64,000 nucleotides of DNA, taken from contig NZ_CP136684.1 in NCBI RefSeq assembly GCF_032921865.1, positions 2,949,001 to 3,013,000 of the forward strand. The letters run 5' to 3'. The notes beneath the pieces were generated by a model. The model made no database searches. It saw only the letters and a program-made list of their open reading frames with translations, and was not told the origin of the DNA. Positions 2,513 through 52,261 of this stretch are shown here, piece after piece (the stretch's first letter is position 1; the number at the start of each line of letters is the position of its first letter). This DNA comes from Thalassospira lucentensis (GTDB lineage: Bacteria > Pseudomonadota > Alphaproteobacteria > Rhodospirillales > Thalassospiraceae). Position numbers and translations under genes: made by a program.

Positions 2513-2522
2513 TCATTGCATC

Positions 2523-3263
2523 TCACCACGGCAACTCATTGCCATCATAGGCAAAGAAGCCGCCGCTTTGTGATGGTTGCAGCCCGTCAATCACCATCAA
2601 CATGTTTGCCGTTGCCTGATCGGGGCTTTGCACATTGAGCCCCGATTTGGCAAACGGGCCCGAAAGGCCGGTATCGACCGTGCCGGGATGAAGGGCGATG
2701 CAGATCGCATTGCGTTTGCTTCGGGCAAGTTCGATGGCGGTGCATTTTACCAGTTGGTTCAATGCGGCCTTTGCCGCCCGGTAACTGTACCAGCCGCCCA
2801 TCCGGTTATCGCCAATGCTGCCGACCTTGGCCGACAGGGTGGCAAAGACCGATTTGCCGTCACGTGGCAAGATTGGCGTGAAATGCCTCATCAGCAAGGC
2901 CGGACCGATGGCGTTGATCAGAAACGATTTCGCCATGTAATCGGCTTCAATCTGGCGCAATGATTTTTCCGGCTGAAATATCTCATCATGCAGATAGCCG
3001 GTGGCATCGATGATCAGACGTACGGATTGGTTCTGTGCGGATGCCTGATCACGGACAAAGGCAGCGGCACTTTCGATGCTGCCGGGATCGGTGAAATCGA
3101 TGGCGGGTTTGGTGCCGCGCGACAGTTCAATCACACCATCAAACCGGCCGCAATCGCGAAGATGTCTCACAAAGGCCCGGCCAATACCGCCGGTCGCGCC
3201 GATGACGATTGCGATGCCGGCTGTGTCAAAGCTTTGCAATTTGGGTGCTGGCGTTCCCGGCAT
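2523..3263 (-). CDS. SDR-family NAD(P)-dependent oxidoreductase
   Basis: A 246-residue short-chain dehydrogenase. It has the TGxxxGxG-like cofactor motif GATGGIG near the N-terminus, an active-site Ser in TLSAKVGS and the YxxxK catalytic pair in YSYRAAK. It most resembles C-factor/CsgA-like SDRs that act on unknown carbonyls. I set the start at 3263 because AGGGA sits before it; the frame opens further upstream (3353), but that extension does not look like an SDR. It is divergent from the unknown gene at 3407. Confidence 0.82.
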   Translation of the reverse strand: MPGTPAPKLQSFDTAGIAIVIGATGGIGRAFVRHLRDCGRFDGVIELSRGTKPAIDFTDPGSIESAAAFVRDQASAQNQSVRLIIDATGYLHDEIFQPEKSLRQIEADYMAKSFLINAIGPALLMRHFTPILPRDGKSVFATLSAKVGSIGDNRMGGWYSYRAAKAALNQLVKCTAIELARSKRNAICIALHPGTVDTGLSGPFAKSGLNVQSPDQATANMLMVIDGLQPSQSGGFFAYDGNELPW

Positions 3264-3406
3264 GATCTGATCCCTGATCTGGTTTTTTATTCTACCTGTT
3301 TTACGCGGGTAAAATTGCGTCGGTTCAGGGATTGTCACAGGGTCGGATACCACCCGTCTCTGATGCGTCAGTTATCTTTTATCTTTCGCAAATCAGGGAC
3401 AATCCA

Positions 3407-3790
3407 ATGCCATATGTTTTCAGTCAGGCCGCCAACCCGCTAGCTATCGCCGAATGTGAATATGCAAGTGCCGCCGAAATCCGCTTCTCGACTTTCACAA
3501 GCTGTATCGGGATCGTTGGCATTCGCAATGGCGAGGTTTTCGGCATCCATTTGCCGCTTGCTGTCGACGATTTCGTCACCAACGCAGATATTGATGCCGC
3601 GCTGGTGCATTGCCAGGGCTTGGCTCAGACAACAATTACCGGGGTGATCGGGGCGTGGACCTCTTCCCGTCCGACTGTATATGCCTATCTTGTTGCCCAG
3701 TTGGGCAATCCGGCAATTGGTGTGGATCATGACGAGGGCGTTTACGGTGCGCGCGTGAACAATGGCAATCTGGTTCTTTCCTATCCCTGA
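3407..3790 (+). CDS. Protein of unknown function (127 aa)
   Basis: The ATG at 3407 is preceded by TCAGGGA; an earlier in-frame start at 3332 has no such site. The 127-residue product has no signal peptide or membrane segment that I can see. It has an alternating hydrophobic pattern suggesting a small alpha/beta domain, and a Cys in a TSCIG motif near residue 38. I recognise no family. A bidirectional terminator separates it from phaZ. Confidence 0.6.
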   Translation: MPYVFSQAANPLAIAECEYASAAEIRFSTFTSCIGIVGIRNGEVFGIHLPLAVDDFVTNADIDAALVHCQGLAQTTITGVIGAWTSSRPTVYAYLVAQLGNPAIGVDHDEGVYGARVNNGNLVLSYP

Positions 3791-6267: not shown

Positions 6268-7251
6268 CTATTCTGCGGCGGATGCCGGAATGGCGGTGCG
6301 TCGGTCCGGAACACCGTCTATCTCGCTTGGCAGCGGACGGGCCGGAACGGCACCGATACGGGCATCGGGCATTGGCGGGTGATCGGGGAACTGGCCGTGA
6401 ATGCGAATGTTCTCGCGATAATCGCTGGCCGATTTCCCACGATACTGGCGAAAACGCCGGTTGAAGTTCGAAAGGTTGCTAAAGCCGTTATTTTCGGCGA
6501 TCTGATAGATCGGAAGATCAGTGCGCGACAGCTGCACACAGGCCCGCGAAATCCGGTATTCGTTCAGATATTCGACAACACTGCGCCCGGTATAACGTTT
6601 GAACAGCCGGTAAAAGCTGCTTTCACTGACACCGGCAACATCGGCAAGCGACGATACCCGAAGCGGTTCGGCGTAATGCGCGTGAATGAAAGCCAGTGCG
6701 CGATCCACCCGGATAGATTCACTGTTCTTCCCGGCTTCGCCGCCAAAATTGGCCGATGCCAGCGGTTTGTCGATCCCGGCAAGCAGGGCCTCAAGCAGTT
6801 CGATCATCAGGATAAAGCGCCGCCGCGGTTTGGCATCATCAAGGTGCGGGCAGATTTCCCGAACGCGTGCTACGGCGTCATCGGTAAAGGAAAGGCCACG
6901 ACGCGCACGGGCAAACAATTCGTGAAAATCGGCAAATTCAACAAAATCCCGCGTCAGGTTTTCCACCCATTCCTGCGACAGCCACAGCACATAAACCTCG
7001 ATCGGGCGGGACGGATCAATGCGTTTGCATTCCCAAAGATGGGGCAGGTTGGGGCCGACCATGGCGAAATCCAGCCCGTCAAACGCCTGCCGGTGATCGC
7101 CAATCAACCGCGATCCTTTGGCATTCAGCGTCAGGGTCATCTCATATTCGGGGTGCTGGTGCCAGTTGCAGCGAAAATCATCCCAGACATAGTGAAAATA
7201 ACCCCAGCTATATCCCTGTGGATTCGTGATCCGTTCCTGGATGATCCGCAT
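6268..7251 (-). CDS. AraC-family transcriptional regulator
   Basis: A 327-residue protein with an N-terminal cupin-like sensing domain (HQHPEYEMTLTL near residues 32-43; LPHLWECK further on). The C-terminal double helix-turn-helix spans about residues 195-290 (VSESSFYRLFKRYTG and GFSNLSNFNRRFRQYRG). It is transcribed away from the alpha-glucoside importer across a 274-bp gap, so it most likely senses the sugar and activates that operon. Known agl systems in rhizobia use a LacI-type regulator, so this pairing differs. Upstream AGTAGGA supports the start. Confidence 0.88.
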   Translation of the reverse strand: MRIIQERITNPQGYSWGYFHYVWDDFRCNWHQHPEYEMTLTLNAKGSRLIGDHRQAFDGLDFAMVGPNLPHLWECKRIDPSRPIEVYVLWLSQEWVENLTRDFVEFADFHELFARARRGLSFTDDAVARVREICPHLDDAKPRRRFILMIELLEALLAGIDKPLASANFGGEAGKNSESIRVDRALAFIHAHYAEPLRVSSLADVAGVSESSFYRLFKRYTGRSVVEYLNEYRISRACVQLSRTDLPIYQIAENNGFSNLSNFNRRFRQYRGKSASDYRENIRIHGQFPDHPPMPDARIGAVPARPLPSEIDGVPDRRTAIPASAAE

Positions 7252-7301
7252 ATCGTCCTACTATTCGTGTCGTGATTGCCGCGAATTTGCAGAATAGTAT
7301 C

Positions 7302-7315
7302 ATCCTTTGAAGGAT
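7302..7315. promoter_or_regulatory. Inverted repeat in the araC/importer divergent promoter
   Basis: ATCCTT-TG-AAGGAT, a 6-bp palindrome, lies 51 bp upstream of the AraC start. A further half-site, ATCCTTTTT, follows near 7335. It is placed well for an operator shared by both divergent genes; which protein binds is inference. Confidence 0.4.
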
Positions 7316-7525
7316 ATGACACTTTGAAAAGGTGCGATCAGGCGTATCCTTTTTCAATCGGGCGGCTCCGCGCCGGGAAGCAATCACCAAAACAGATTGC
7401 AGCCGGTGATTGCACCTGGGGTTCCGGTACGGGCGCCCGACCCGGACAAAAAGACCAATCAAAATGAATAAAAGCAGCTGCCAAAAGCTGCATGGGAAAA
7501 CCGATAACATCCTAGGGAGGTCTAT

Positions 7526-8800
7526 ATGACCTTGATGAAAAAACTGCTCGCAACGGCGGGCGTTCTTGGCGCGACTTTTGCGATGGCCGGATCGGCCAAT
7601 GCCGCAAAGATTTCTATTTCCTGTGGTGCCGTCGGACAGGAACTTGCGCTTTGCCAGGAAGGTGTTGATGCATGGGCAAAGCAGACAGGCAACGAAGTCG
7701 CGGTGATTTCCACCCCGAACTCCACCACCGAACGACTGGCCCTTTATCAGCAGATTCTGGCCGCCGGATCGTCCGATATCGATGTGTTCCAGATTGATGT
7801 GATCTGGCCGGGGATCCTGGGCAACCACTTCATTGATCTTAACGAATACATGGCGGACGAAGCCAAGCAGCATTTTGAGGCCATCGTCACCAACAACACC
7901 TTTGAAGACCGGCTGGTCGCCATGCCGTGGTACACGGATGCGGGCGTGCTTTATTACCGCAAGGATTTGCTGGAAAAGTATGGCGAAACTGTTCCTGAAA
8001 CCTGGGAACAGCTGACAAAAACAGCGCAGAAAATCCAGGAAGGCGAACGCAAGGCCGGTAACGACAAAATGTGGGGCCATGTGTTTCAGGGCCGTGCCTA
8101 TGAAGGCCTGACCTGCAATGCGCTGGAATGGGTCGTTTCGTTCAATGGTGGTTCGGTGGTCGAACCGAATGGCGATATTTCGATCAATAACGATCGGGCC
8201 AAAAAGGCAATTGAAACCGCTTCAAACTGGATCGGCACTATTTCCCCCGAAGGTGTCCTTGGCTATGCCGAGGAAGAAGCACGCGGTGTGTTTCAGTCAG
8301 GCAATTCGGTCTTCATGCGCAACTGGCCCTATGCCTGGGCGCTGGCCAATTCGGCAGACAGCCCGGTCAAGGGCAAGGTCGGTGTTGCTGCCCTGCCCAA
8401 AGGCGGTGAAGACGGCCGTTCGGCCGCAGCCCTTGGTGGCTGGCAGCTCTCGGTTTCGAAATATTCGGAAAATCCCGAACTTGCAGCCGATCTTGTGAAA
8501 TTCCTGACCTCCTACGAAGAACAGAAACGTCGCGCGATCAAGGGTTCCTATAACCCGACCATTGCGGATCTCTACAAGGACGAGGAAGTCCTTTCGGCCA
8601 ATCCGTTCTTTGGCGATCTGTACGAGACATTCACCAGTGCTGCACCGCGCCCGTCAACCGTGACCGGTTCGAAATACAATCAGGTATCAAGCGAGTTTTG
8701 GCAGGCGGTGCATGCATCCTTGTCGGGATCGCAAACCGTCGATCAGGCGGTTACCGGGCTTGAACGCAACCTGAAACGTGTAAAGCGTTCCGGCTGGTAA
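7526..8800 (+). CDS. Alpha-glucoside-type ABC transporter substrate-binding protein
   Basis: A 424-residue family 1 extracellular solute-binding protein. It has a clear signal peptide (MTLMKKLLATAG... cleaved after about residue 26 at ANA-AK). The stretch STTERLALYQQIL followed by IDVFQIDVIWPG is typical of trehalose/maltose/alpha-glucoside binding proteins. AGGGAGG lies just before the ATG at 7526. It is the first gene of the import operon, acts in the periplasm, and delivers its ligand to the two permeases downstream. The exact sugar (trehalose, maltose, sucrose) cannot be read from sequence. Confidence 0.88.
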   Translation: MTLMKKLLATAGVLGATFAMAGSANAAKISISCGAVGQELALCQEGVDAWAKQTGNEVAVISTPNSTTERLALYQQILAAGSSDIDVFQIDVIWPGILGNHFIDLNEYMADEAKQHFEAIVTNNTFEDRLVAMPWYTDAGVLYYRKDLLEKYGETVPETWEQLTKTAQKIQEGERKAGNDKMWGHVFQGRAYEGLTCNALEWVVSFNGGSVVEPNGDISINNDRAKKAIETASNWIGTISPEGVLGYAEEEARGVFQSGNSVFMRNWPYAWALANSADSPVKGKVGVAALPKGGEDGRSAAALGGWQLSVSKYSENPELAADLVKFLTSYEEQKRRAIKGSYNPTIADLYKDEEVLSANPFFGDLYETFTSAAPRPSTVTGSKYNQVSSEFWQAVHASLSGSQTVDQAVTGLERNLKRVKRSGW

Positions 8801-8886
8801 ACGGACCTCGCAGTACCGGGGACGAGGGTCGCCCGGTACTGCCCCGATCCTGTTTTCGTACCGGTTTGCTTAGGCCGGTTTGATGG

Positions 8887-9858
8887 ATGGCGGTCATAAC
8901 CGAACATCCCCCTTCAAGATCAAGAGCGGTTCCCATGGCGCAAGCTTCGTCCCTGACGCGTGCAAGACGGCGTTCGGCATGGCTGTTTTTAACACCGATG
9001 CTGGTCATTCTTGCCGCAGTGGCCGGTTGGCCGTTGCTCCGGACTTTCATCTTTGGCTTTACCGATGCCAATCTGTCCGACCTTGGAAATTATGGCTTTA
9101 TCGGCTTTGAAAATTTCTATGCGGTTTATGATGGCGAGACGTTCGGCCTTCTGGCCGATCCGGAATGGTGGCAGGCGGTCTGGAATACGATTTACTTCAC
9201 CGTGATTTCGGTTTCGCTTGAAACGGTACTGGGGATCATCGTGGCCCTTGTCCTTAATCAGGAATTCAAGGGGCGCGGTCTGGTGCGGGCGGCGGTTCTG
9301 ATCCCTTGGGCGATCCCGACAATTGTATCGGCCAAAATGTGGAACTGGATGCTGCATGACCAGTTCGGCATCATCAATGATCTTCTGATGTCGCTGGGGC
9401 TGATTGCATCGCCGATCGCCTGGACGGCCAATCCGGATACGGCGATGGTCGCTGTGATCATGGTTGATGTCTGGAAAACCACACCGTTTATGGCGCTTTT
9501 GACACTGGCAGCCCTTCAGATGCTGCCAAGTGACTGTTACGAAGCCGCCCGTGTTGATGGCATCCATCCGGTCCGGGTGTTTTTCAAGGTAACCCTGCCG
9601 CTGATCAAACCCGCATTGATGGTGGCCGTGATCTTCCGTGCCCTTGATGCATTGCGTGTGTTTGACGTGATTTATGTCTTAACGCCAAACAATCCGAACA
9701 CCATGACCATGTCGGTCTATGCCCGGCAGCTTCTGGTCGATTTTCAGGAAGTCGGATATGGCTCGGCGGCATCAACGCTGCTGTTTCTGGTCATCGCCTT
9801 TTCGATCATGGCCTACATGATGATCGGTCGGGTCCGGCTTGACGAGGGGGGACATTAA
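8887..9858 (+). CDS. Sugar ABC transporter permease (MalF-like)
   Basis: A 323-residue inner-membrane protein with about six hydrophobic spans and the EAA loop EAARVDGIHPVRVFFKVTLP that docks the ATPase. The short, mostly polar N-terminus precedes the first span (SAWLFLTPMLVILAAV). The start is uncertain: ATG 8887 gives the full length, while ATG 8935 would remove 16 residues. The next permease gene starts one base after this stop, indicating tight coupling. Confidence 0.87.
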   Translation: MAVITEHPPSRSRAVPMAQASSLTRARRRSAWLFLTPMLVILAAVAGWPLLRTFIFGFTDANLSDLGNYGFIGFENFYAVYDGETFGLLADPEWWQAVWNTIYFTVISVSLETVLGIIVALVLNQEFKGRGLVRAAVLIPWAIPTIVSAKMWNWMLHDQFGIINDLLMSLGLIASPIAWTANPDTAMVAVIMVDVWKTTPFMALLTLAALQMLPSDCYEAARVDGIHPVRVFFKVTLPLIKPALMVAVIFRALDALRVFDVIYVLTPNNPNTMTMSVYARQLLVDFQEVGYGSAASTLLFLVIAFSIMAYMMIGRVRLDEGGH

Positions 9859-9859
9859 C

Positions 9860-10699
9860 ATGAACCGCAATGTCAAATCCCTGATGATGAAGGCAGGGTT
9901 CTATCTTCTGGTAGCGGCCATCGTGATCTTTGCCGTTTTCCCGTTCTACTATGCGATCCTGACCGCGTTCGAAACCGGATCGGCGTTGTTTGACGTCAAT
10001 TACCTGCCCGAAAGTTTCAGTTTCTCGAACTATCTGTCGGTGTTTGAAGGGCAACCATTCGGTCGCAATATCTTCAATTCGATCTTTGTCAGTGTGATGG
10101 TTGTTGCCCTGTCGCTTCTGATGGGGGTGACCGCATCCTACGCGCTTGCACGGGTTAAATTCGCCGGGCGTGGCCTGTTGCTGGTGACAATCCTGTCGGT
10201 GTCGATGTTCCCGCAGGTCGCGGTGCTGTCGGGGATGTTCGAACTGATCCGCGCCGTCGGGCTTTATAACTCGATGTTCGGGCTGGCGATTTCATACATG
10301 ATGCTGACCCTGCCATTCACGGTCTGGATCCTGACCGCCTTCATGCGCGAATTACCGCGCGAGCTTGAAGAAGCCGCCGTGATGGACGGGGCCAGCCCCT
10401 GGACCGTGATCACGCGGGTGTTCCTGCCGGTTATGTGGCCGGCGATGGTCACCACCGGGCTTCTGGCCTTCATCATGGCATGGAACGAATTCCTGTTTGC
10501 CCTGACCTTCACCCTGACCAATGAACAGCGCACCGTGCCGGTTGCCATCGCCCTGATTTCCGGGGCCAGCCAGTTTGAAATGCCATGGGGCAATATCATG
10601 GCGGCATCGGTGATCGTGACGGTTCCGTTGATTGTTCTGGTTCTGATTTTCCAGCGTCGCATCGTTTCCGGCCTGACCGCCGGGGCTGTCAAAGGCTGA
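9860..10699 (+). CDS. Sugar ABC transporter permease (MalG-like)
   Basis: A 279-residue partner permease with about six spans and the EAA-type loop EEAAVMDGASPWTVITRVFLP. The start at 9860 is chosen because GAGGGGGGA precedes it; the earlier in-frame codon at 9839 lies inside the previous gene. With the MalF-like protein it forms the translocation channel of the alpha-glucoside importer. Confidence 0.9.
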   Translation: MNRNVKSLMMKAGFYLLVAAIVIFAVFPFYYAILTAFETGSALFDVNYLPESFSFSNYLSVFEGQPFGRNIFNSIFVSVMVVALSLLMGVTASYALARVKFAGRGLLLVTILSVSMFPQVAVLSGMFELIRAVGLYNSMFGLAISYMMLTLPFTVWILTAFMRELPRELEEAAVMDGASPWTVITRVFLPVMWPAMVTTGLLAFIMAWNEFLFALTFTLTNEQRTVPVAIALISGASQFEMPWGNIMAASVIVTVPLIVLVLIFQRRIVSGLTAGAVKG

Positions 10700-15178: not shown

Positions 15179-15973
15179 ATGCGGGTCGCCTTGCCTTTTG
15201 GTGTGGCGGCCTTGCGTGACGATGAACCGGTTCCCAATTTTCTGGACGAAGACATGACAAACGAACGCATTTTCCAAAGCGGCGATGACATGCTTGCGGC
15301 CATGGTCAAGGAAACCGTGGAACGCCTTGAATTCGCCATTGCGACCCGCGGCCATGCCAGCATGGCGGTGGCCGGTGGACGTTTTCCCAAACCGCTCTTT
15401 GAAAAACTCTCGACCGTCAAACTGGACTGGTCAAAAGTCACTGTCACCCTTGGCGATGATCGCTGGGTGGGGCTGGATGACGATCAGTCGAACGAAAAGC
15501 TGGTTCGCGATCATTTCCTGATCAACGAAGCCCAGCATGCGCGTTTTGTGTCGCTGAAAACCGGCGATGCCAATCCCGAAGACGCGATTTCAACGGTTTC
15601 AAGCCGCCTTCGCACCGATCTGAACTGGCCGCTTGATATCGTGTATCTGGGCATGGGTGATGATGGCCATACGGCATCCCTGTTCCCGTCATCCGCGCCC
15701 GATGCCCTGCAAAAGGGACTTTATCCCGCCCATGGCGAACTGGTTGCCGCCGCGCGTCCGACCGTATCCCCGGTCCCGCGCATCAGCATGACTTTGCCCG
15801 CCATCCTCAATGCCCGGTATATTGGCATCCATATTACCGGACAATCCAAATGGTCGACCTTTGAAACCGCGAAAAACGGCACCGAGATCGAAGAAATGCC
15901 GGTTCGCGCAATCTTGCAGCAGACTGACATCCCCGTCGATCTGTGGTGGAGCGCCGAGAACCCGAAAGGCTGA
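15179..15973 (+). CDS. pgl: 6-phosphogluconolactonase
   Basis: It hydrolyses 6-phosphogluconolactone to 6-phosphogluconate. Motifs seen: [15 protein letters not shown] near the N-terminus, TLGDDRWVG and [14 protein letters not shown], all typical of the DevB/NagB-like fold. From the ATG at 15179 the protein is 264 residues. An ATG at 15254 gives 239 residues, the usual family length. I kept the upstream start because it lies 4 nt after the zwf stop and the extra codons look coding, but the shorter form is quite possible. Confidence 0.9.
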
Positions 15974-15978
15974 ACCCC

Positions 15979-17817
15979 ATGAAACGTGAATTAGAACAGA
16001 TTACCAAACGCATCATCGAACGTTCCAAGCCGACCCGCGAGGCCTATCTGGAACGCATCGAAGCTGCCGCGTCCGACCGCCCGCATCGCTCATCCCTGTC
16101 ATGCGGCAACCTTGCCCATGCGTCTGCGGGCTGCAGTGCGGCGGACAAGGAACGCATCAATGGCGACGAAGGTGCCAATCTGGGCATCGTGACATCCTAT
16201 AACGATATGCTGTCCGCCCATCAGCCGCTGGGCGTCTATCCCGATCGCATCAAAAAGGCCGTGTTCGAAGCCGGCGCAACCGCACAGGTTGCCGGTGGCG
16301 TGCCCGCCATGTGCGATGGCGTGACGCAAGGCCGTCCGGGCATGGAGCTGTCCCTGTTTTCGCGTGATGTGATCGCGATGTCGACTGCGGTATCGCTGTC
16401 GCATGATGTGTTTGATGCCGCTCTTTATCTTGGTGTCTGCGATAAAATCGTACCGGGTCTGGTGATGGGGGCACTTGCCTATGGTCACATTCCGGCGGTG
16501 TTTGTGCCAGCCGGTCCGATGCCGTCCGGTTTACCCAACAATGAAAAGGCCCGCATCCGGCAGCTTTACGCGCAGGGCAAGGTCGGTCGCAAGGAACTGC
16601 TCGAAGCGGAAACCGCATCCTATCACAGCCCGGGGACCTGTACCTTCTATGGTACGGCGAACTCCAACCAGATGCTGATGGAAATCATGGGCCTGCATTT
16701 GCCCGGTGCGGCGTTTGTTAATCCAAACACCGATCTGCGTGATGCCCTGACCGAAGAAGCCGCCCGTCGTGCGCTTCAGATCACCAAACTTGGCAATGAT
16801 TATCGTCCGGTTGGCAAAATTCTCGATGAAAAGGCATTCGTGAACGGCATCATCGGTCTGCTTGCGACCGGTGGGTCGACCAACCATACCCTGCATCTTC
16901 CGGCGATGGCCCGTGCCGCAGGGATCGAACTTCGCTGGGAAGATTTCGATGAATTGTCGCGTCTGATCCCGCTTCTGTGCCGTGTTTATCCGAACGGGCA
17001 GGCTGATGTGAACCATTTCCACGCCGCGGGCGGCATGGGCTTTGTGATCAGCGACCTTCTGAAAAACGGTCTTCTGCATCCCGATCTTCAGACCATCCAT
17101 ACCGGCGGCATGGCGGCCTATGGCACCGAGCCGTATCTGGATAACGGCAAATTGTCGTGGCGTGATGCCCCGGCCACCAGCCATGACGAGGAAATCCTGC
17201 GTCCGGCCGAAAAGGCGTTCAGTGCCGATGGTGGCCTTCGCATGCTGGCGGGGAACCTTGGCCGTTCGGTGATCAAGGTATCGGCTGTGAAGCCTGAAAA
17301 CCGCGTGATCGAAGCCCCGGCTGCGGTCTTTACCTCGCAGGAAGAAATGATGCAGGCGTTCAAGGACGGCAAACTGCATCGCGACGTTGTCTGCGTCGTT
17401 CGTTTCCAGGGGGCCAAGGCCAATGGCATGCCGGAACTGCACAAACTGACCCCGCCGCTTGGCGTGTTGCAGGACCTTGGTTACAAGGTCGCCCTTGTCA
17501 CCGATGGCCGCATGTCGGGCGCATCGGGCAAGGTCCCGGCGGCAATCCATGTCACCCCCGAAGCCATGATGAATGGGCCGATTGCCAAGGTGAAAGACGG
17601 CGATATCGTGCGTCTTGATGCCGAAACCGGCGAACTGATCCTGAACGTGACCGAGGCCGAACTGGCCAAGCGTGACTTCGCAACCTTTGATAACAAGGCC
17701 GAACATCAGACCGGTTTCGGTCGTGAATTGTTCGGTGTCTTCCGCGAACATGTCGGACTGGCCGAACTGGGTGCCAGTGCGGTGCTTCCGGGGGCAGCCG
17801 AGGTCGAGGTAGCATAA
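15979..17817 (+). CDS. edd: Phosphogluconate dehydratase
   Basis: A 612-residue IlvD/Edd-family dehydratase converting 6-phosphogluconate to 2-keto-3-deoxy-6-phosphogluconate. Cysteines expected to bind the Fe-S cluster are seen in [20 protein letters not shown] and [31 protein letters not shown] is the conserved family signature. The ATG at 15979 lies 5 nt after the pgl stop. The stop codon overlaps the glk start by one base, so the two are translationally coupled. Confidence 0.96.
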
Positions 17818-18755
17818 TGCGGCTGGTTGGTGATATCGGCGGTACCAACGCCCGCTTTGCCTGGATTGACGAAAATGGAAATCCGCAATCACCGATGACA
17901 TTGCCGGTCCGCGATTATGCGACCATCGGCGATGCCATGCGGGATTTCATGGTGAAAACCGATTGCGCGGATCTGAATGAATTTGCGGTTGCCGTGGCCT
18001 GCCCGGCATCCGCAGACATCATCAAATTCACCAATAACCCGTGGGTGTTTTCCAAGAACGCGCTCAAGGCTGAATTCGGTCTTGATCGTCTGGTGGTGGT
18101 CAATGATTTTACCGGTCTTGCGATGTCCGTGCCTTATCTTGGCGACGAAGACCTGATCACGCTGTTTGATGGTCCGGGGCGCCCGGGATTGCCATTGGCG
18201 GTGATCGGGGCGGGGACCGGGCTTGGCGTTTCGGGGCTTCTGCGCCATGACGATCACTGGATTCCGATCCAGGGCGAAGGCGGCCATGTGTCACTGCCCG
18301 CCGTCGATGATCTCGATTATGAAATCGTCAAATTCCTGACGGCTGAACTGGGCCGTGTGTCGGCCGAACGTATCCTGTCGGGGATGGGGCTTGAAAACCT
18401 CTATCGCGCGCTTGCTGCCATTGACGGGATCGACGTGACACCGCTTAGTGCCGCTGTAATCGTTGAAAATGCCATGCAGAAAAACGATCCGCTTTGCCTT
18501 AAGGTGCTGGATCGGTTCTGTCTGTTCATGGGCGGGGTGGCCGGTGATCTGGTCCTGACGCTTGGCGCATTCGACGGCGTATTTATCGGTGGCGGCATTG
18601 GTCCGCGCATTGCCGACTTTATGAAACAAAGCGGCCTTAAGGATCGTATGATCGCCAAGGGCCGTTTCCATGATTTGATGAATGATGTGCCGGTACGCCT
18701 GATGACGGCGAAATACCCGGCCCTGATCGGTTGTGCCAAGATTTTGACGGCCTGA
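17817..18755 (+). CDS. glk: Glucokinase
   Basis: A 312-residue bacterial glucokinase (Glk family) phosphorylating glucose with ATP. Phosphate-binding motif GDIGGTNARFAW is at residues 5-16. FTGLAMSVPYL, GAGTGLGVSGLL and GEGGHVSLPA (substrate contact) follow in order. The TAATG overlap with edd indicates coupled translation. It supplies glucose 6-phosphate from the glucose released by the GH13 enzyme encoded upstream. Confidence 0.95.
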   Translation: MRLVGDIGGTNARFAWIDENGNPQSPMTLPVRDYATIGDAMRDFMVKTDCADLNEFAVAVACPASADIIKFTNNPWVFSKNALKAEFGLDRLVVVNDFTGLAMSVPYLGDEDLITLFDGPGRPGLPLAVIGAGTGLGVSGLLRHDDHWIPIQGEGGHVSLPAVDDLDYEIVKFLTAELGRVSAERILSGMGLENLYRALAAIDGIDVTPLSAAVIVENAMQKNDPLCLKVLDRFCLFMGGVAGDLVLTLGAFDGVFIGGGIGPRIADFMKQSGLKDRMIAKGRFHDLMNDVPVRLMTAKYPALIGCAKILTA

Positions 18756-46293: not shown

Positions 46294-46890
46294 ATGGCCG
46301 CACGGCGTCGCCAGGAAACGATGGAAGAAAACCGCGAAAAGCTTATTTCGGCGGGGCGCAAGGCATTCGGAACGCAAGGGTTTGCCGCGGCGTCGATGGA
46401 TGAGCTGACGGCATCGGTTGGCCTGACGCGGGGCGCGCTTTATCACAATTTCGGCGACAAGAAGGGGCTGCTTGCCGCGGTGGTGGCGCAGGTCGATGGC
46501 GAGATGGCCGCGCGGGCACGCGCCGCAAGTGCCAGCGCCGGGGACGGGTGGCAACAGCTTCTGGCAGAGGGGGCGGCCTATATCGCGATGGCGCTTGATC
46601 CCGAGGTGAGGAGAATCGTTCTGCTTGACGGGCCTGCCATTCTTGGCGATCCGTCGCATTGGCCGAGCCAGAATGCGTGCCTTGAGGCCACCAAAGAAGC
46701 GGTCGAAAGGCTGATTGCCGACGGGGTTATGAAACCGGTCGATACCGATGCCGCTGCCCGGCTGCTGTGCGGGGCGGCCCTGAACGCGGCGTTATGGGTT
46801 GCGGACAGTGATGATCCGAAGTCTGCTTTGCCCAAGGCGGTTGATGCCTTCAGCCTGATGGCCGAGGGGTTTCTGGTCGAGAAACGATAG
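46294..46890 (+). CDS. TetR-family transcriptional regulator
   Basis: 198 residues. The N-terminal HTH (REKLISAGRKAFGTQGFAAA, then LTRGALYHNFGDKKGLLAAV) is a standard TetR_N domain; the C-terminal part (LCGAALNAALWVADS) is like TetR_C_33-type domains. AAGGAGG precedes the ATG. It most likely represses itself and the divergent RidA-like gene through the three operators. Confidence 0.92.
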   Translation: MAARRRQETMEENREKLISAGRKAFGTQGFAAASMDELTASVGLTRGALYHNFGDKKGLLAAVVAQVDGEMAARARAASASAGDGWQQLLAEGAAYIAMALDPEVRRIVLLDGPAILGDPSHWPSQNACLEATKEAVERLIADGVMKPVDTDAAARLLCGAALNAALWVADSDDPKSALPKAVDAFSLMAEGFLVEKR

Positions 46891-46969
46891 TTCCCCGATT
46901 TGTGAACCGGATGCCCGCCTTTGCGGGCATGGCGGAGAAGGGAAAGAGTCCAACTTGCCGCATCGGAGA

Positions 46970-47013
46970 CAAAAGAAAACCCCGCAGCCAAAAGGCGTAC
47001 GGGGTTTTCTTTT
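46970..47013. terminator. Terminator shared by tetR and the partial tRNA-Thr
   Basis: A 14-bp stem (AAAAGAAAACCCCG against CGGGGTTTTCTTTT). A diverged copy of the same terminator lies at 50912-50954, beside the intact tRNA-Thr. Another hairpin (ATGCCCGC/GCGGGCAT) lies at about 46909-46932. Confidence 0.8.
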
Positions 47014-47085
47014 AATGGTGCCGGCAGAGAGACTCGAACTCCCAACCTTCGGATTACAAATCCGCTGCTCTACCAATTATAGCTA
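47010..47085. repeat. Left direct repeat (att-like) of the tRNA-Thr insert
   Basis: 76 bp identical to 50951-51026. It contains the tRNA-Thr 3' end back to part of the D-stem region. The insert spans about 3.94 kb between repeat starts. This is the footprint left by site-specific integration into a tRNA gene. Confidence 0.9.
47016..47085 (-). pseudogene. Truncated tRNA-Thr copy
   Basis: Identical to the intact tRNA-Thr except that the 5' acceptor strand is missing: the seven bases before TAGCTATA cannot pair with the 3' strand TGCCGGC. It retains the anticodon loop, T-arm and CCA. It should not give a functional tRNA. Confidence 0.85.
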
Positions 47086-47146
47086 CATCGTCGATGGCAG
47101 CTTTGATGCGTCCTCGCGACGATGTTAGCAGACCTGAGTACGCTAT

Positions 47147-47284
47147 ATGCCTTTGTTCCGTATGTTAGAGCCGCAAGAAAAATTCAAACTTGACGCGATG
47201 CCTCCATTCCGCGTGGCAGATTGGTTAGTGGAATTGCAAGCTTACGATGAATTTCTTGCATTCGATTATCGTTATGAGGAATGA
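47147..47284 (+). CDS. Small acidic ORF at the left end of the island (45 aa)
   Basis: An ATG at 47147 opens 45 codons ending with TGA at 47282. The product is acidic and rich in aromatic residues (FRVADWLVELQAYDEFLAFD). An in-frame stop lies 9 bp upstream of the ATG. The ribosome site is weak. It lies just inside the att repeat, before the helicase gene on the same strand. It may be a small partner protein or a remnant of a larger gene. Confidence 0.4.
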   Translation: MPLFRMLEPQEKFKLDAMPPFRVADWLVELQAYDEFLAFDYRYEE

Positions 47285-47351
47285 TTATTTGAAAGCAAAG
47301 AGATACGGGGAGGCGTGACGTTGTTTTGCGCCAAGGCTAGGCGGAAAATTT

Positions 47352-50300
47352 ATGAAGAATAGACCTTATTTCAATAAGTCGATTAAAGAGCTGGAAAAGA
47401 CCTTTAATGACAACCAGAGCGATTCTGAAACGCTTAACCGCTTGATACATGAACTGGAGTTTCGCAGCACGCAACGCGCACTTGCACTAAAGAAAAAAGT
47501 TCAGGCGGCAACTACCGATCAATCCCCTAATTCATCTCCTCAAAAGCCTGTATTCAATCCTGAACCAAAAGCGGATCAGCTTGACTCAGCTCCGCGTCAA
47601 TCAGCGCTAGCTGTTGGTGAGCCTCCGAAGCTCCATGAAGCTATTAGGCCGCCGGAAACAATCAAGATTGCGGCCAAACCTGTAGCGAAACCACCGATCA
47701 CAAATGATGCGCAGGATATTCTGCGCGCATGGACGGCGTTGGAGGTTTTGTCTCCACAAGGGTATCGACGAGAAACAGATCTGGTAGCCGGTGACCGGAA
47801 AAAGATTGCTCGTTTTGAAGAAGGACCTTTGCCGTGGGAACTAGGGGAAAAATCTCTTCCCAAAAAGCGGCTTTACTATGAGCTTATCCTCGGTGCGATA
47901 GAACTAGCTCCAGCTGTTGAAATGCTGCTGAAAGTTTACGCTGATAAGCGCCCGGATAAACCCAGCGTAAGGGGGAGCAGTCCGATTGCAAGCATCCTTT
48001 TGGACAAAGAAGGACGCCCCTTGGAGGAAGAGACAAGTGCTGCGATTTCAAGTTTTGCGTGGGGCGTTCCAATCGCTCTTCAAGGGGACTTGAAGAAGCT
48101 CGCCGACTGGCCCGCCCAGGAAAAGATTTTGAAAGGACAGTTCAGAAAACTCTTAGTCAAACGGGATCGAAATGATGATGTAATTCCGTTGACGAAAAGC
48201 CGTATCTCAGAGCTGTTTGAGTATCTTGTCTCGACCCTAAACCTAGACGGTCATGTGATGAAAGCGCCGTCCTTCGCTTTGCGGCGATATGAGTTTTTTG
48301 CCAGTAAGACACCGCCCGAACCGGGTTTGCTTAATTCGTTCTTCTTGGAGGATTTGGCCGAGGCCCGCGTGCTGGCAAGTATGGGGAAACTTCCCAAAGC
48401 GCTCGAACATTATCTTGGTATCAAAAAGCCGTCGCAACGCATTAATTTGTTGGAAGACAATGCTGGTTTACGGGACTTACTTCAACCCGCTTTGACGCCT
48501 CCCGGGAAATGGCCAGGCAAAGGACGTTTCCCGCTGGCTTTGTTACAGCAAGCGGCAGTCAACGCCACAAATGCGCGGCAAATTAAGACTGGTGTTCTCG
48601 CCGTTAACGGTCCGCCCGGTACCGGTAAGACAACCTTACTTCGTGATGTTGTGACAGCACGGCTCATAGAGCGTGCCGTAGTGATGCATGAATTTGACCG
48701 TCCATCGCAAGCCTTCACGCCAACTAGCGAAACCCTTCAACGTAGCGGTGCGAAGATCACACTTCATAAGCTGGATGAACGACTTAAAGGCTTCGAGATG
48801 GTGGTAACATCATCCAACAACAAAGCTGTCGAGAATGTCAGTGCAGAACTTCCTGCACTAGACGCAATCGCGGTGGATGCGCCCGAACTTCGATATTTCA
48901 AGAGTATTTCAGATAATGTTCTTGAACGTGATACGTGGGGTCTTATTGCCGCTGTCCTTGGCAATTCTTCAAACCGCTACATGTTTTCACAAAGGTTCTG
49001 GCGCGACGAGGAGAATGGTCTTTCCACGTATCTCAATCATGCCAGCGGTGTGCCGCAAATAGTATCGGAACCCCAAGGTCGCGGCCGTCCTCCGCTGAAG
49101 CGAAATCGTCGAATCATTGATCGTGAGCATCCGCCGTCAAATAGCCGCGAAGCACAGATGCGGTGGGAGAAAGCCCGTTCCAAATTCAAGACCAAGTTTG
49201 ATGCTTTAAAGCGAACGGAAAACCGCCTGCAAAAGCTTCATGTGCAGCTCGTGCGTCACGCACAGGTCGTTGCTGAAATTAATAACCTCGCGCAAAAACT
49301 GCCTTCTCTTGAAGTGGATGCGCGGAACTTAGAAAGCGAGCGCGCAACCGCCCTACACGAGCTACAAGAAGCAGAAAACCGGTTTAAGAATTCACGACAA
49401 GCCCAAGTTTCTCATTTTTCATCGCGCCCTGGTTTCTTTGCAAGGTTATTCCGCACGCCTCGTTTCAGAACATGGCGCGATGAACAGCAAGGCCTTTTTA
49501 ATAGAGCCGGAGGCGATCAGCAGCGTTTTCACAACTGCAAGAAAATTGCCGAAGATCTTGGTGCAGAGCTCGCGGCGACAAAGGAATTGATTGCGCAGAA
49601 TCGGGAGTTTTTGGACACCCTTCGTGCCGAAAAGACAGATTTGGAAGCAAGCCTGCAACATACTTGCGTTGAGCTTGATGTACCGATCCCAGATGACGAC
49701 TTCTTTGCGGGCGCACACGAAGATATTCAAACCGCCAGCGTCTGGTTTGATAGCGCGGCAAGTCGACAGCGCGATGATGTCTTTGAAGCCGCTATTCAAC
49801 TGCACCACGCATTTATCGATGCAGCAGCCGATCCGCTGCGGCAAAACCTATCTGTCTTTGTAGAGACTTTCGGGACGCGTTCACTCGGCACACCGCAAAA
49901 AGATGTCTTGATCCCTGATCTTTGGTCATCTTTCTTCTTGGTGGTTCCGGTTGTCTCGACAACATTTGCCTCGGTGAATTGGATGTTCTCGCGGCTTCCC
50001 ACCGAAGCCCTGGGATGGCTTCTGGTAGATGAAGCTGGGCAAGCAGTGCCACAAGCTGCCGTTGGTGCGATGATGCGAACAAAGCGCTCGGTTGTCGTCG
50101 GCGATCCGCTTCAAATCGAGCCCGTTGTTACCCTCCCTAACAGCCTCACGGAAGAAGTATGTGCTTTCTTCGGCATTGACCCATTGAAATACAATGCGCC
50201 AGAAGCCTCGGTGCAGACAGTTGCAGATGCTGCCAGTATGTACTGTGCTAAGTTTCCGATCGGCAGCGGGCACCGGGATGTTGGATCGCCGCTACTTGTG

Positions 50301-50864
50301 CATCGACGCTGCGATAGCCCGATGTTTGATATCTCGAACGAGATTGCCTATTCAAATCTGATGGTGCAGGCGAAGGCGCCGTCAACGTCAAATCCGGTTC
50401 TCGGACACTCATGCTGGATAGATGTTGTAGGCAAGTCTAGTTCTGACAAATGGTGCGCTGATGAAGGAGAAGTGTTGATTAAAATGCTGCGAAAGATTTG
50501 CTTGAGCGGCACTCGCGCTGATCTATACGTGGTGACTCCTTTTGTTGTTGTGCAGGACAATCTCCGTCAGGCAATCCTGCGCAGCGGCGTGTTAAGCGGA
50601 TGGATCGATAAACCTGACGATTGGGTATGGGAGCACGTTGGTACGGTTCACACAGTTCAAGGCCGTGAAGCCGCAATCGTCTTCTTCGTCCTTGGGGCGC
50701 AAGATTCTTCTCAAAATGGCGCGCGCAATTGGGCCGGTAGCAAGCCGAATCTCGTGAACGTTGCAGTAACGCGAGCTAAAGCATCACTATACGTTATCGG
50801 CAATCGCAGCCTTTGGAAAACGGCGGGAGTGTTTTCGGTGCTAGACAGGTATCTTTCTGATTAA
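47352..50864 (+). CDS. Large SF1 (UPF1-like) helicase, island cargo (1170 aa)
   Basis: Helicase motifs seen: I GPPGTGKTT (about 420-428), Ia-like TSSNNKAVENV, II DEAGQ (893-897), III GDPLQIEPV, V TVQGREA and VI NVAVTRAK near the end. Between motifs I and II lies a 465-residue insert with a coiled coil at about 595-765. The N-terminal 50 residues (YFNKSIKELEKTFNDN) form a helical module followed by a Pro-rich linker. There is no PLD or other nuclease domain I can identify. UPF1-like helicases of this sort occur in anti-phage systems such as Mokosh; a defence role here is inference. Codon use is AT-richer than the neighbours, in keeping with transfer. Confidence 0.85.
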   Translation: MKNRPYFNKSIKELEKTFNDNQSDSETLNRLIHELEFRSTQRALALKKKVQAATTDQSPNSSPQKPVFNPEPKADQLDSAPRQSALAVGEPPKLHEAIRPPETIKIAAKPVAKPPITNDAQDILRAWTALEVLSPQGYRRETDLVAGDRKKIARFEEGPLPWELGEKSLPKKRLYYELILGAIELAPAVEMLLKVYADKRPDKPSVRGSSPIASILLDKEGRPLEEETSAAISSFAWGVPIALQGDLKKLADWPAQEKILKGQFRKLLVKRDRNDDVIPLTKSRISELFEYLVSTLNLDGHVMKAPSFALRRYEFFASKTPPEPGLLNSFFLEDLAEARVLASMGKLPKALEHYLGIKKPSQRINLLEDNAGLRDLLQPALTPPGKWPGKGRFPLALLQQAAVNATNARQIKTGVLAVNGPPGTGKTTLLRDVVTARLIERAVVMHEFDRPSQAFTPTSETLQRSGAKITLHKLDERLKGFEMVVTSSNNKAVENVSAELPALDAIAVDAPELRYFKSISDNVLERDTWGLIAAVLGNSSNRYMFSQRFWRDEENGLSTYLNHASGVPQIVSEPQGRGRPPLKRNRRIIDREHPPSNSREAQMRWEKARSKFKTKFDALKRTENRLQKLHVQLVRHAQVVAEINNLAQKLPSLEVDARNLESERATALHELQEAENRFKNSRQAQVSHFSSRPGFFARLFRTPRFRTWRDEQQGLFNRAGGDQQRFHNCKKIAEDLGAELAATKELIAQNREFLDTLRAEKTDLEASLQHTCVELDVPIPDDDFFAGAHEDIQTASVWFDSAASRQRDDVFEAAIQLHHAFIDAAADPLRQNLSVFVETFGTRSLGTPQKDVLIPDLWSSFFLVVPVVSTTFASVNWMFSRLPTEALGWLLVDEAGQAVPQAAVGAMMRTKRSVVVGDPLQIEPVVTLPNSLTEEVCAFFGIDPLKYNAPEASVQTVADAASMYCAKFPIGSGHRDVGSPLLVHRRCDSPMFDISNEIAYSNLMVQAKAPSTSNPVLGHSCWIDVVGKSSSDKWCADEGEVLIKMLRKICLSGTRADLYVVTPFVVVQDNLRQAILRSGVLSGWIDKPDDWVWEHVGTVHTVQGREAAIVFFVLGAQDSSQNGARNWAGSKPNLVNVAVTRAKASLYVIGNRSLWKTAGVFSVLDRYLSD

Positions 50865-50950
50865 GGTTTCTTCTCTACGCTGCGACGGATAGAACCGCCC
50901 GGCCAAATAGCCAAAAGAAAACCCCGTAAGCATGTGCTTGCGGGGTTTCT

Positions 50951-51026
50951 TTTTAATGGTGCCGGCAGAGAGACTCGAACTCCCAACCTTCGGATTACAA
51001 ATCCGCTGCTCTACCAATTATAGCTA
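50951..51026. repeat. Right direct repeat (att-like) of the tRNA-Thr insert
   Basis: Exact 76-bp copy of 47010-47085, here part of the complete tRNA-Thr. A preceding 15-bp identity (CAAAAGAAAACCCCG at 50912 and 46970) extends the duplication across the terminator. Confidence 0.9.
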
Positions 51027-51033
51027 TGCCGGC
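50957..51033 (-). tRNA. tRNA-Thr (anticodon TGT)
   Basis: Complete 77-nt cloverleaf including encoded CCA. The acceptor GCCGGCA pairs with TGCCGGC, the anticodon loop TTTGTAA gives TGT, and the T-loop is TTCGAGT. It is the intact copy at the right end of the island, with its own promoter to the right. Confidence 0.95.
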
Positions 51034-51187: not shown

Positions 51188-52066
51188 TCAGCCGCGTGTC
51201 CGGTACAGTTCGTAAAGGGCAACCGCGGCCGCGTTCGAGACGTTGAGGCTTTCGATGCGGTCCGACATCGGCAGTTTGACGAGGAAATCGCAATTTTCGC
51301 GCGTCAGGCGGCGCAGGCCGTCACCTTCGGAGCCCATGACGATTCCGACACGGCCCTTCAGCTTGGCTTCGGCCAGGGTCTGTTCGGCGTAACCATCCAT
51401 GCCCGCCAGCCAGAAGTGGGCGGCTTTGAGCTTTTCGATGGTGTGGTTGAGGTTGCCCGCATGAATATAGGGCACGGTTTCAAGCGCGCCGCTGGCCGAT
51501 TTGGCCAGAACACCGGTTTCAGGCGGGGCGTGACGGTCGGGCACGATGACGGCAGCCGCACCAAAGGCAGCCGCACTGCGAAGAATCGCGCCGACATTGT
51601 GCGGGTCGGTGACCTGATCAAGGATGAGGACCGTGCATTGTTCCTCGTCCCTGGTGTCGGCGATCAGTTCTTCGACGGAAATCTGGGGCAGGGGGGCGCA
51701 ATGCATGGCCATGCCCTGATGGACGGTGCCCGGCGGCAGCATTTCATCAAGATCGGTGCGCCCGGCGGCGTCAAGCTGGACATCGGTGCGTTCGGTATCG
51801 GCAAGGGCGGCAACAATTTCGTCGCGCACGGCCTCGGACGCCCAGATTTTGTGAATCGTGCGTTGCGGATTGTAAATCGCGTTCAGAACCGGGTGACGGC
51901 CAAACAGAATCAGGCGCGAAGCGTTGCTTGCATTGCCGCCGTCGCGGCCGCGTTTTCGTCCGCGACGCGAATTGCCGTCACGTTTATCATCGTCTTGCGT
52001 GAAGCTGTCGCCCGGACCCGTTCCGGTCGAACGGTTGGCAGAACGTGAATTGTTGCGACGCGACAT
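51188..52066 (-). CDS. rlmB: 23S rRNA 2'-O-methyltransferase (TrmH/SpoU family, RlmB)
   Basis: 292 residues. A basic, low-complexity N-terminus (residues 1-45) leads to the SpoU substrate-binding domain (FGRHPVLNAI) and the knotted SPOUT domain with motifs LDQVTDPHNVGAILRSAAAFG, GSEGDGLRRLTRENCD and MSDRIESLNVSNAAAVALYE. It methylates G2251-type ribose in 23S rRNA. The start at 52066 has CGGAGG upstream; the open frame extends beyond it. Confidence 0.9.
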   Translation of the reverse strand: MSRRNNSRSANRSTGTGPGDSFTQDDDKRDGNSRRGRKRGRDGGNASNASRLILFGRHPVLNAIYNPQRTIHKIWASEAVRDEIVAALADTERTDVQLDAAGRTDLDEMLPPGTVHQGMAMHCAPLPQISVEELIADTRDEEQCTVLILDQVTDPHNVGAILRSAAAFGAAAVIVPDRHAPPETGVLAKSASGALETVPYIHAGNLNHTIEKLKAAHFWLAGMDGYAEQTLAEAKLKGRVGIVMGSEGDGLRRLTRENCDFLVKLPMSDRIESLNVSNAAAVALYELYRTRG

Positions 52067-52178
52067 AATGGCGGAAACCTCCGGACGGTAAGGGTGTGAA
52101 TGCACTTTGTTTCGCTTTGGAACGAAAGCATGGGGAACATATAGGAAAGGAAATACGATTTCGTGTTTTTTTTTGCTG

Positions 52179-52208
52179 TTGACAAGGACAGGCCCTGCAA
52201 CGTATTCC
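52179..52208 (+). promoter_or_regulatory. Promoter of the tRNA-Tyr/tRNA-Gly/tuf operon
   Basis: TTGACA, 18 bp, TATTCC, then a GC-rich discriminator (CTCCCTCGCC) of the kind found at stringently controlled promoters. The tRNA-Tyr starts 54 bp after the -10. Confidence 0.65.
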
Positions 52209-52261
52209 CTCCCTCGCCGAACGAAGCCGGGGGGTAACCCCGACAACGTTTTGACCCTGAT

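What the first reader, a model, noticed from the sequence alone, without database searches (positions are those of the whole stretch)
47010..51033. Minimal genomic island in tRNA-Thr carrying one giant UPF1-like helicase
An exact 76-bp direct repeat brackets about 3.9 kb. The right copy is part of an intact tRNA-Thr(TGT); the left copy is a tRNA fragment that has lost its 5' acceptor strand. The only sizeable gene inside is a 1170-residue SF1 helicase with AT-richer codon use than its neighbours. No integrase, excisionase or transposase is visible, so either the island is moved in trans by another element's integrase or it is the remnant of a larger one. tRNA-borne islands with a single large ATPase or helicase are typical carriers of anti-phage functions.
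Basis: partly seen in the sequence, partly recalled or inferred. Interest (0 to 1): 0.82.

Follow-up and report, generated by a model that had tools for sequence, protein, structure and literature searches.

The report
Transferred solo helicase beside a tRNA
A marine Thalassospira bacterium has acquired a single large helicase gene, probably an anti-virus gene, beside a threonine tRNA gene; the repeat that looks like a mobile-element scar is better explained by a sloppy DNA-exchange event than by an integrase.

Summary
Observation confirmed. An exact 76-bp direct repeat (47010-47085 / 50951-51026) brackets 3.87 kb holding one sizeable gene, a 1,170-aa UPF1-like SF1 helicase, beside an intact tRNA-Thr(TGT). 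It is foreign: GC3 0.486 against 0.640±0.045 for 45 window ORFs; Ks to T. australica 0.19 against 0.82-1.60 for six flanking genes. The site is a hotspot: of 29 Thalassospira genomes, 2 carry this helicase, 2 another single large gene (one a PADLOC candidate), 3 integrase-bearing elements, 4 a small operon or part of it, 17 no clear insert, 1 unassessable. The integrase reading is disfavoured: the DNA after the truncated tRNA copy is a remnant of a chromosomal GFA gene that adjoins this tRNA in other Thalassospira. In T. australica the remnant continues leftwards as gene, not tRNA; in the window it is fused to the tRNA at 4 shared bases, as expected of homology-facilitated illegitimate recombination. 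Two integrase elements at this site have a 24-bp core, and their integrase was not found here. The protein is related to Mokosh MkoC and resembles CoCoNuT CnuH but lacks the PLD nuclease and an adjacent nuclease; many relatives are plasmid- or phage-borne. Anti-phage function is likely but untested.

The parts
46294..46890 (+). TetR-family regulator gene: native left flank (adjoins the tRNA directly in the empty site of G024)
46967..47015 (.). native terminator hairpin of tRNA-Thr (loop nearly as in the empty site of G024; flank 46891-47009 89% identical to G024)
47016..47085 (-). truncated tRNA-Thr copy, tRNA bases 8-77; part of the exact 76-bp repeat 47010-47085
47082..47085 (.). GCTA: 4-nt overlap between tRNA and GFA-gene remnant at the left junction
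47082..47114 (+). remnant of a GFA-family gene (85% to G006; lies in a 270-bp stretch 91% identical to G005)
47352..50864 (+). 1,170-aa UPF1-like SF1 helicase, MkoC-related, no PLD; Walker A 420-427, coiled-coil insertion 598-775, DEAGQ 893-897
50909..50956 (.). second terminator hairpin, contiguous with the cassette (same loop as the native terminator of G011)
50957..51033 (-). intact tRNA-Thr(TGT); contains most of the right copy of the exact repeat 50951-51026
51188..52246 (-). rlmB-like SpoU-family rRNA methyltransferase gene, native right flank (tRNA-rlmB gap 155/157 identical to conspecific G060)

Best explanation
A single-gene cassette carrying a UPF1-like SF1 helicase came horizontally from another Thalassospira lineage into the tRNA-Thr(TGT)/rlmB locus without an integrase of its own. 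Linear donor DNA [GFA remnant - helicase - terminator - tRNA] recombined at its tRNA/terminator end by homology, and its other end was joined illegitimately inside the recipient's tRNA at the 4 shared bases GCTA (homology-facilitated illegitimate recombination). The recipient's tRNA was thereby cut to bases 8-77 and the incoming one restored a whole gene, which makes the repeat look like an att pair. Shown: the junction, the remnant, the transfer, the hotspot. Inferred: the recombination route. Function (inferred): the helicase is an anti-phage protein. Its UPF1-type motor would load on phage or aberrant nucleic acid, the long coiled-coil arm serving sensing or partner contact. Some relatives couple the motor to a nuclease, fused (PLD) or adjacent (Mrr); this solo form either blocks phage replication or transcription by translocation or borrows an unlinked nuclease.
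For: Junctions: window left end = tRNA...ATTATAGCTA|CATCGTCGATGG; the same DNA in T. australica (G005) is preceded by more GFA gene (132 bp, 79% to G006), not tRNA. Left flank like empty G024 (89%), right flank 155/157 to G060 and G009 against 109/141 to G005, inside 92.6% to G005. Ks helicase 0.194 against 0.815, 0.865, 1.602, 1.046, 0.816, 1.065 for six flanking genes; helicase Ka/Ks 0.21, so selected. Site polymorphism in 29 genomes. G003/G016-type integrase not found in G000. Protein: MkoC profile E 6e-71 over residues 391-1159; UPF1/IGHMBP2/Senataxin/Dna2 fold, VIA Z 17.9 over 436 residues, Foldseek E 1.7e-12. Relatives: 720 of 72,556 plasmid records, 5 of 50,697 phage records, 16 viral contigs; an Mrr-type nuclease gene next 3' in 3 of 15 annotated plasmid loci looked at. 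A distant relative in G668 ends 63 bp from the 3' end of a tRNA-Met, across a terminator, in the window's geometry and without a detectable tRNA repeat.
Against: A 4-nt overlap alone could be chance (roughly 2% per junction, my estimate). Both tRNA copies carry the own-clade anticodon-stem allele while the right terminator matches G011 of another clade: the donor must have had the own-clade allele or the copies were converted. G060's unrelated single-gene insert breaks the tRNA within 2-3 nt of the window's breakpoint, a hint of a site-specific process. Of 24 relative loci outside the Thalassospira site scanned for tRNAs, only G668's lies directly at one. No phage assay exists; defence neighbourhoods were seen without a background control; no nuclease was recognised in the protein or its island.
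Confidence: 0.55

Rival explanations
1. Site-specific island: a (lost or trans-acting) tyrosine integrase inserted a circular element into tRNA-Thr; the 76-bp repeat is attL/attR.
For: tRNA geometry is classical; this very site is used by integrase-bearing elements in G003, G016 and G017, and the 24-bp core of the first two lies wholly inside both copies; G060 has a similar long truncated tRNA copy.
Against: The arm next to the left copy is a GFA-gene remnant that in T. australica continues as GFA gene, without tRNA; no integrase recognised in the segment; the G003/G016-type integrase was not found in this genome, though other integrases were not examined; the repeat is 76 bp and similarity includes the terminator, not 24 bp.
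Confidence: 0.25
2. Local tandem duplication of the tRNA followed by insertion or capture of the helicase between the copies.
For: Two similar tRNA copies with similar terminators.
Against: Left copy's terminator is native (G024-like), right copy's resembles another clade's (G011-like) and is contiguous with the G005-like helicase DNA; 26 of 28 assessable genomes lack a second long copy at the site, G018 being unassessable.
Confidence: 0.08
3. The helicase is not a defence gene but a plasmid or element maintenance/recombination helicase that was stranded at the locus.
For: Many relatives lie on conjugative plasmids (611 of 720 records), in some cases inside transfer or replication regions; SF1 helicases also serve replication and repair.
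Against: Patchy distribution (6 of 60 genomes, the window's own included), best match among profile libraries is the Mokosh helicase, some relatives near type I R-M, Mrr, SAVED/ThiF genes, kept under purifying selection as a solo chromosomal gene.
Confidence: 0.3
4. Split two-gene system: the helicase works with the unlinked Mrr-type nuclease elsewhere in the genome (G000 C2:3073068-3074492).
For: The Mrr protein that adjoins the helicase in Agrobacterium has a 37% homologue in 1 of 29 Thalassospira, this one; also in G711, whose helicase is 66% identical.
Against: Post hoc; T. australica (92% helicase) lacks it; of 15 helicase-bearing genomes given to the call only G711, which had raised the idea, has it; 5 of the 8 genomes with the Mrr homologue were looked at and none has a helicase beside it.
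Confidence: 0.1

Closest known systems
Mokosh type II (MkoC; helicase + PLD fusion)
   Same: UPF1-like SF1 helicase; MkoC profile matches residues 391-1159
   Different: no PLD (profile positions 952-1136 unmatched, no HxK(x4)D motif); seven MkoC-type rows branch apart with SH-aLRT 100 in a quick tree
CoCoNuT CnuH helicases (PMC11090510, passages read)
   Same: UPF1-like helicase with a coiled-coil insertion after Walker A; some relatives with a downstream nuclease gene
tRNA-borne genomic islands / defence hotspots
   Same: variable cargo at one tRNA gene, direct repeat, integrase-bearing elements at the same site in relatives
   Different: no integrase; left junction is a chromosomal gene remnant, not an att arm; long repeat with similarity into the terminator
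Homology-facilitated illegitimate recombination, as proposed for V. cholerae T6SS effector arrays (PMC5361080, passages read)
   Same: one homologous anchor, one illegitimate end, a displaced remnant of the old gene left behind
   Different: the anchor here is a tRNA gene and the displaced remnant is a tRNA piece that mimics an att site

Membership tests
UPF1-like SF1 helicase | Walker A, DEAxQ, GDxxQ, RecA2 motifs | tested here: met
   Walker A G420-K426, DEAGQ 893-897 and GDPxQxxP 917-924 invariant in 17 aligned sequences, the window's included; RAK 1141-1143 at least 90%; Pfam AAA_11 and AAA_12 above cut-off
UPF1-like SF1 helicase | fold | tested here: met
   model pLDDT 75.7; IGHMBP2 4b3g Z 17.9, rmsd 6.5, 436 aligned; UPF1 2xzp Z 16.6, rmsd 6.0, 445 aligned
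Mokosh type II | MkoC-type helicase | tested here: met
   PDLC03924 E 6.4e-71, positions 245-951 of 1136
Mokosh type II | PLD nuclease at the C-terminus | tested here: not met
   protein ends after the helicase; no HxK(x4)D; full-length MkoC rows such as L096-L099 have it
CoCoNuT type II/III | coiled-coil insertion in the helicase after Walker A | tested here: met
   helices 598-689 and 702-775 between Walker A and DEAGQ
CoCoNuT type II/III | adjacent CnuB/McrB GTPase and CnuE effector | tested here: not met
   helicase is the only sizeable ORF between the repeats, flanked by TetR and rlmB-like genes
Integrase-type genomic island | integrase gene in the element | tested here: not met
   none recognised in the segment
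Integrase-type genomic island | element end adjoining the att copy | tested here: not met
   the DNA is a GFA-gene remnant that continues as gene in T. australica
Integrase-type genomic island | excision to an empty site / circle | not testable with these tools
   needs PCR or reads
tRNA integration hotspot | empty and differently occupied sites in relatives | tested here: met
   29 genomes: 2 helicase, 2 other single large gene, 3 integrase elements, 4 small operon or part of it, 17 no clear insert, 1 broken contig
Homology-facilitated illegitimate recombination | one homologous end, one microhomology junction with no other homology | tested here: met
   right end in tRNA/terminator; left GCTA junction; the route itself is inferred
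Anti-phage defence system | reduces phage infection | not testable with these tools
   needs plaque assays

The most novel reading that the evidence does not exclude
tRNA genes act as portable homology anchors by which single-gene defence cassettes are swapped between strains without any integrase, leaving truncated tRNA pieces that mimic att sites; and the cassette here encodes a one-protein anti-phage system, a solo UPF1-like helicase that needs no nuclease.
Probability: 0.25. Interest if true: 0.72.

Novelty: new variant of a known kind. Interest (0 to 1): 0.5.

Why it matters
A tRNA repeat is commonly read as an integrase scar (general knowledge). This locus shows a long, perfect tRNA repeat better explained by illegitimate recombination, and gives a test: look at what adjoins the truncated copy in the other carriers. 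If general, part of the 'integrase-less' tRNA islands need no missing integrase. The helicase belongs to a large family found on hundreds of plasmids (720 of 72,556 records, 548 of them Klebsiella) that is seen fused to PLD, beside Mrr, or alone; a solo member under purifying selection is a clean starting point to ask whether the helicase motor alone can stop phage.

Tried and rejected
Obligate unlinked Mrr partner: lead, weakened. tRNA adjacency of helicase relatives elsewhere: no tRNA in 12 relative loci (first 12 of the 16; the other four are Thalassospira sites), tRNAs in 5 of 12 more (L134, L135, L136, L139, L140). The one in L135 lies inside the helicase ORF and looks spurious; those of L134, L136 and L139 are 1.4 kb or more away; L140 (G668) is directly adjacent, with no tRNA-Met repeat in 25 kb to its left. 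So tRNA adjacency is seen in 1 of 24 and is not a family rule. PDB by sequence: no hit. Defence neighbours were noted, not tested against a background. Residues 1-112 were not searched as a separate fold. In DNA alignment the G024 row was given in the wrong orientation and must be ignored; the junction rests. L152 (no single long ORF) was left out of the 45-row tree. Tree warnings: quick mode, long branches, uneven composition. The stretch G015 C79 (L079), with an 83% copy of the tRNA, was fetched and not analysed. Papers: search listings; passages read in PMC10952713, PMC5361080, PMC12278908, PMC11090510; PMC3240628 seen only as the start of its abstract in a listing. No paper on this locus or this solo helicase was seen in those listings, which cover open-licence papers only.

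Full report
What is there. The window lies in a 4.73-Mb two-contig genome of Thalassospira (genus inferred from the 92% relative in T. australica NP 3b2, and the kinship of the searched genomes; G005 is taken to be that strain because its contig has the same length and carries the same gene). Between a TetR gene and an rlmB-like gene (Pfam), an exact 76-bp direct repeat (47010-47085 / 50951-51026) brackets 3.87 kb. Similarity extends to about 118 nt because both copies continue into a terminator hairpin. The right copy is inside an intact tRNA-Thr(TGT). The left copy is tRNA bases 8-77. Its lost 5' acceptor strand is replaced by bases that happen to pair at 5 of 7 positions, so Rfam still scores it; by a simple binomial with random bases, done by hand, that is about a 7% chance event.

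The cargo. One 1,170-aa ORF, 47352-50864. Pfam: AAA_11 and AAA_12. PADLOC: MkoC, E 6.4e-71, over the helicase part only. PDB by sequence: nothing. The AlphaFold2 model (pLDDT 75.7, 11 sequences) resembles IGHMBP2, UPF1, Senataxin, Aquarius and Dna2, with two 74- and 92-residue helices (598-689, 702-775) as a coiled-coil arm inserted between Walker A and DEAGQ. Residues 58-109 have pLDDT under 50. No PLD motif.

It is foreign. GC3 is the lowest of the 46 ORFs tabulated. Between this genome and T. australica (G005) the helicase has Ks 0.194 and Ka/Ks 0.21, whereas six flanking genes have Ks 0.815-1.602. So the gene moved between these lineages after they split, and it is kept as a working protein.

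The site is a hotspot. In 29 Thalassospira genomes the interval between tRNA-Thr and its left neighbour holds: this helicase in G000 and G005; a 605-aa acyltransferase-3/SGNH protein in the conspecific G060, which lacks the helicase anywhere; a 654-aa protein matching the PADLOC candidate PDC-S39 (E 1e-96) in G009; integrase-bearing elements in G003 (integrase, relaxase, SacI-type restriction enzyme and a cytosine methylase), G016 (integrase, a relative of G003's relaxase, a phage-GPA-like protein) and G017 (an integrase at the tRNA and a long insert that looks like a prophage to me, though three of its large ORFs had no Pfam match); an ECF sigma factor, NrsF-like regulator and hydrolase in G025, with relatives by ORF cluster in G010 and G012 and the hydrolase among other ORFs in G027; no clear insert in 17; G018 cannot be judged (contig end). 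The classification is mine, from ORF clusters, not a formal test; G020, G014 and G001 have 0.9-1.4 kb of unassigned ORFs, and G019 and G023 have other left neighbours, and all five were counted as no clear insert. In G003 and G016 the tRNA repeat is 24 bp, the integrase being the tRNA-proximal gene.

How it got there. The left flank and terminator of the window match the empty site of G024 (89%). The right flank (tRNA-rlmB gap) matches conspecific G060 at 155/157 and G005 at only 109/141. The DNA between, from 47082 through the helicase and the right terminator into the tRNA, aligns to G005 at 92.6%. The first bases after the truncated tRNA, 47082-47114, are a remnant of a GFA-family gene: 85% to G006, where that gene (Pfam GFA) adjoins the tRNA. 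In G005 the remnant is longer: 132 bp that match G006 upstream-plus-start of the gene at 79%, without a tRNA piece; it is joined instead to the first half of the native terminator. So the two carriers share the cassette and its right side but have different left ends, each an illegitimate join; in the window the join is at GCTA. That is the pattern described as homology-facilitated illegitimate recombination (passages of PMC5361080; start of the abstract of PMC3240628 in a listing). A linear donor that carries its own tRNA explains why the recipient ends with one whole and one truncated tRNA.

What does not fit. Both tRNA copies have the own-clade anticodon-stem allele, while the right terminator loop equals that of G011 from another clade: the donor had the own-clade allele, or the copies were converted. 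The breakpoint in G060's unrelated insert is 2-3 nt from the window's. I cannot explain this coincidence, and it keeps the site-specific rival alive at 0.25.

Relatives and function. Matches: 6 of 60 near genomes at E<=0.001, the own one included; 6 of 385 class genomes at E<=1e-20, the own one included; 720 of 72,556 plasmid records, of which 25 cover 80% of the query; 522 at E<=1e-60, of which 468 Klebsiella; 5 of 50,697 phage records; 16 viral contigs. In a quick 45-row tree the window protein sits with T. australica and G711 (66%), and seven MkoC-type PLD proteins form a separate branch. One distant relative (L083, 1,390 aa) also has a C-terminal PLD motif; the tree does not rule out a single origin of the PLD fusion. 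In 3 of 15 annotated plasmid loci, taken from the best-scoring hits, an Mrr-type nuclease gene follows directly (L090, L092, L147), and these three fall in two places of the tree among solo relatives. Other neighbours seen: a type I R-M methylase (L137), SAVED/ThiF/nucleotidyltransferase genes (L094), a DUF4238-like gene just below the cut-off and ArdC (L143), tyrosine integrases (L117), KAP NTPase (L118). These are observations without a background count. CoCoNuT CnuH helicases are described as UPF1-like with a coiled-coil insertion and a downstream nuclease partner (passages of PMC11090510); this protein resembles them in build but stands alone.

A second tRNA case. In G668, an alphaproteobacterium of another family, a distant relative (L108/L140) ends 63 bp from a tRNA-Met, whose 3' end faces it across a terminator hairpin, as in the window (gap 92 bp). 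No tRNA-Met repeat was found in the 25 kb to the left, and the contig ends just beyond the tRNA; in the related G474 the contig ends 89 bp after the helicase, just past a terminator. It is 1 of 24 relative loci scanned, so it is a lead, not a pattern.

An unlinked partner? The Mrr protein of L092 has a homologue in 1 of 29 Thalassospira, the window's own genome, at C2:3073068-3074492 between an NnrS-like and a pepA-like gene (names by reading the ORFs). G711 has one too. But of 15 helicase-bearing genomes given to only G711 had it, T. australica did not, and none of five unlinked Mrr loci (5 of the 8 genomes found) has a helicase beside it. I keep it as a weak lead.

Verdict. A real, horizontally acquired single-gene cassette at a tRNA hotspot; probably a defence gene; probably not an integrase island. 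New variant of known kinds rather than something categorically new.

Noticed in passing
window 47019-47092 (-): The truncated tRNA copy still scores 42.7 bits as a tRNA in Rfam because the island-derived 5' strand re-pairs at 5 of 7 acceptor positions.
   Followed up: partly
G000 C2:3073068-3074492 (L154:9027-10730): A solo Mrr-type restriction endonuclease found in no other of 29 Thalassospira genomes, 37% to the nuclease that adjoins the helicase in Agrobacterium.
   Followed up: yes
L140 (G668) 6587-10134: A distant helicase relative ends 63 bp from the 3' end of a tRNA-Met, across a terminator, with no tRNA repeat: the window's geometry at another tRNA in another family.
   Followed up: partly
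L047 (G060) 1889-3703 and second tRNA copy: Conspecific genome with an acyltransferase-3/SGNH gene at the same site and a decayed 72-nt tRNA copy whose breakpoint is 2-3 nt from the window's.
   Followed up: partly
L049 (G009) 15879-17840: PDC-S39 defence candidate (DUF7380 + DUF4209) as a solo gene at the same site, without a second tRNA copy.
   Followed up: partly
L058 (G003) 7.9-17.9 kb: 10-kb element: DUF6538-type integrase, MOB relaxase, SacI-type restriction enzyme with a cytosine methylase, 24-bp tRNA core.
   Followed up: partly
L079 (G015 C79:28000-45000): A second, 83% identical copy of the tRNA-Thr sequence on another contig of G015; fetched, not analysed.
   Followed up: no
plasmids: A 33% relative of the helicase is carried by most of the 468 Klebsiella plasmid records that match at E<=1e-60 (judged from the rows listed), beside transfer genes in the one looked at (L093).
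   Followed up: no
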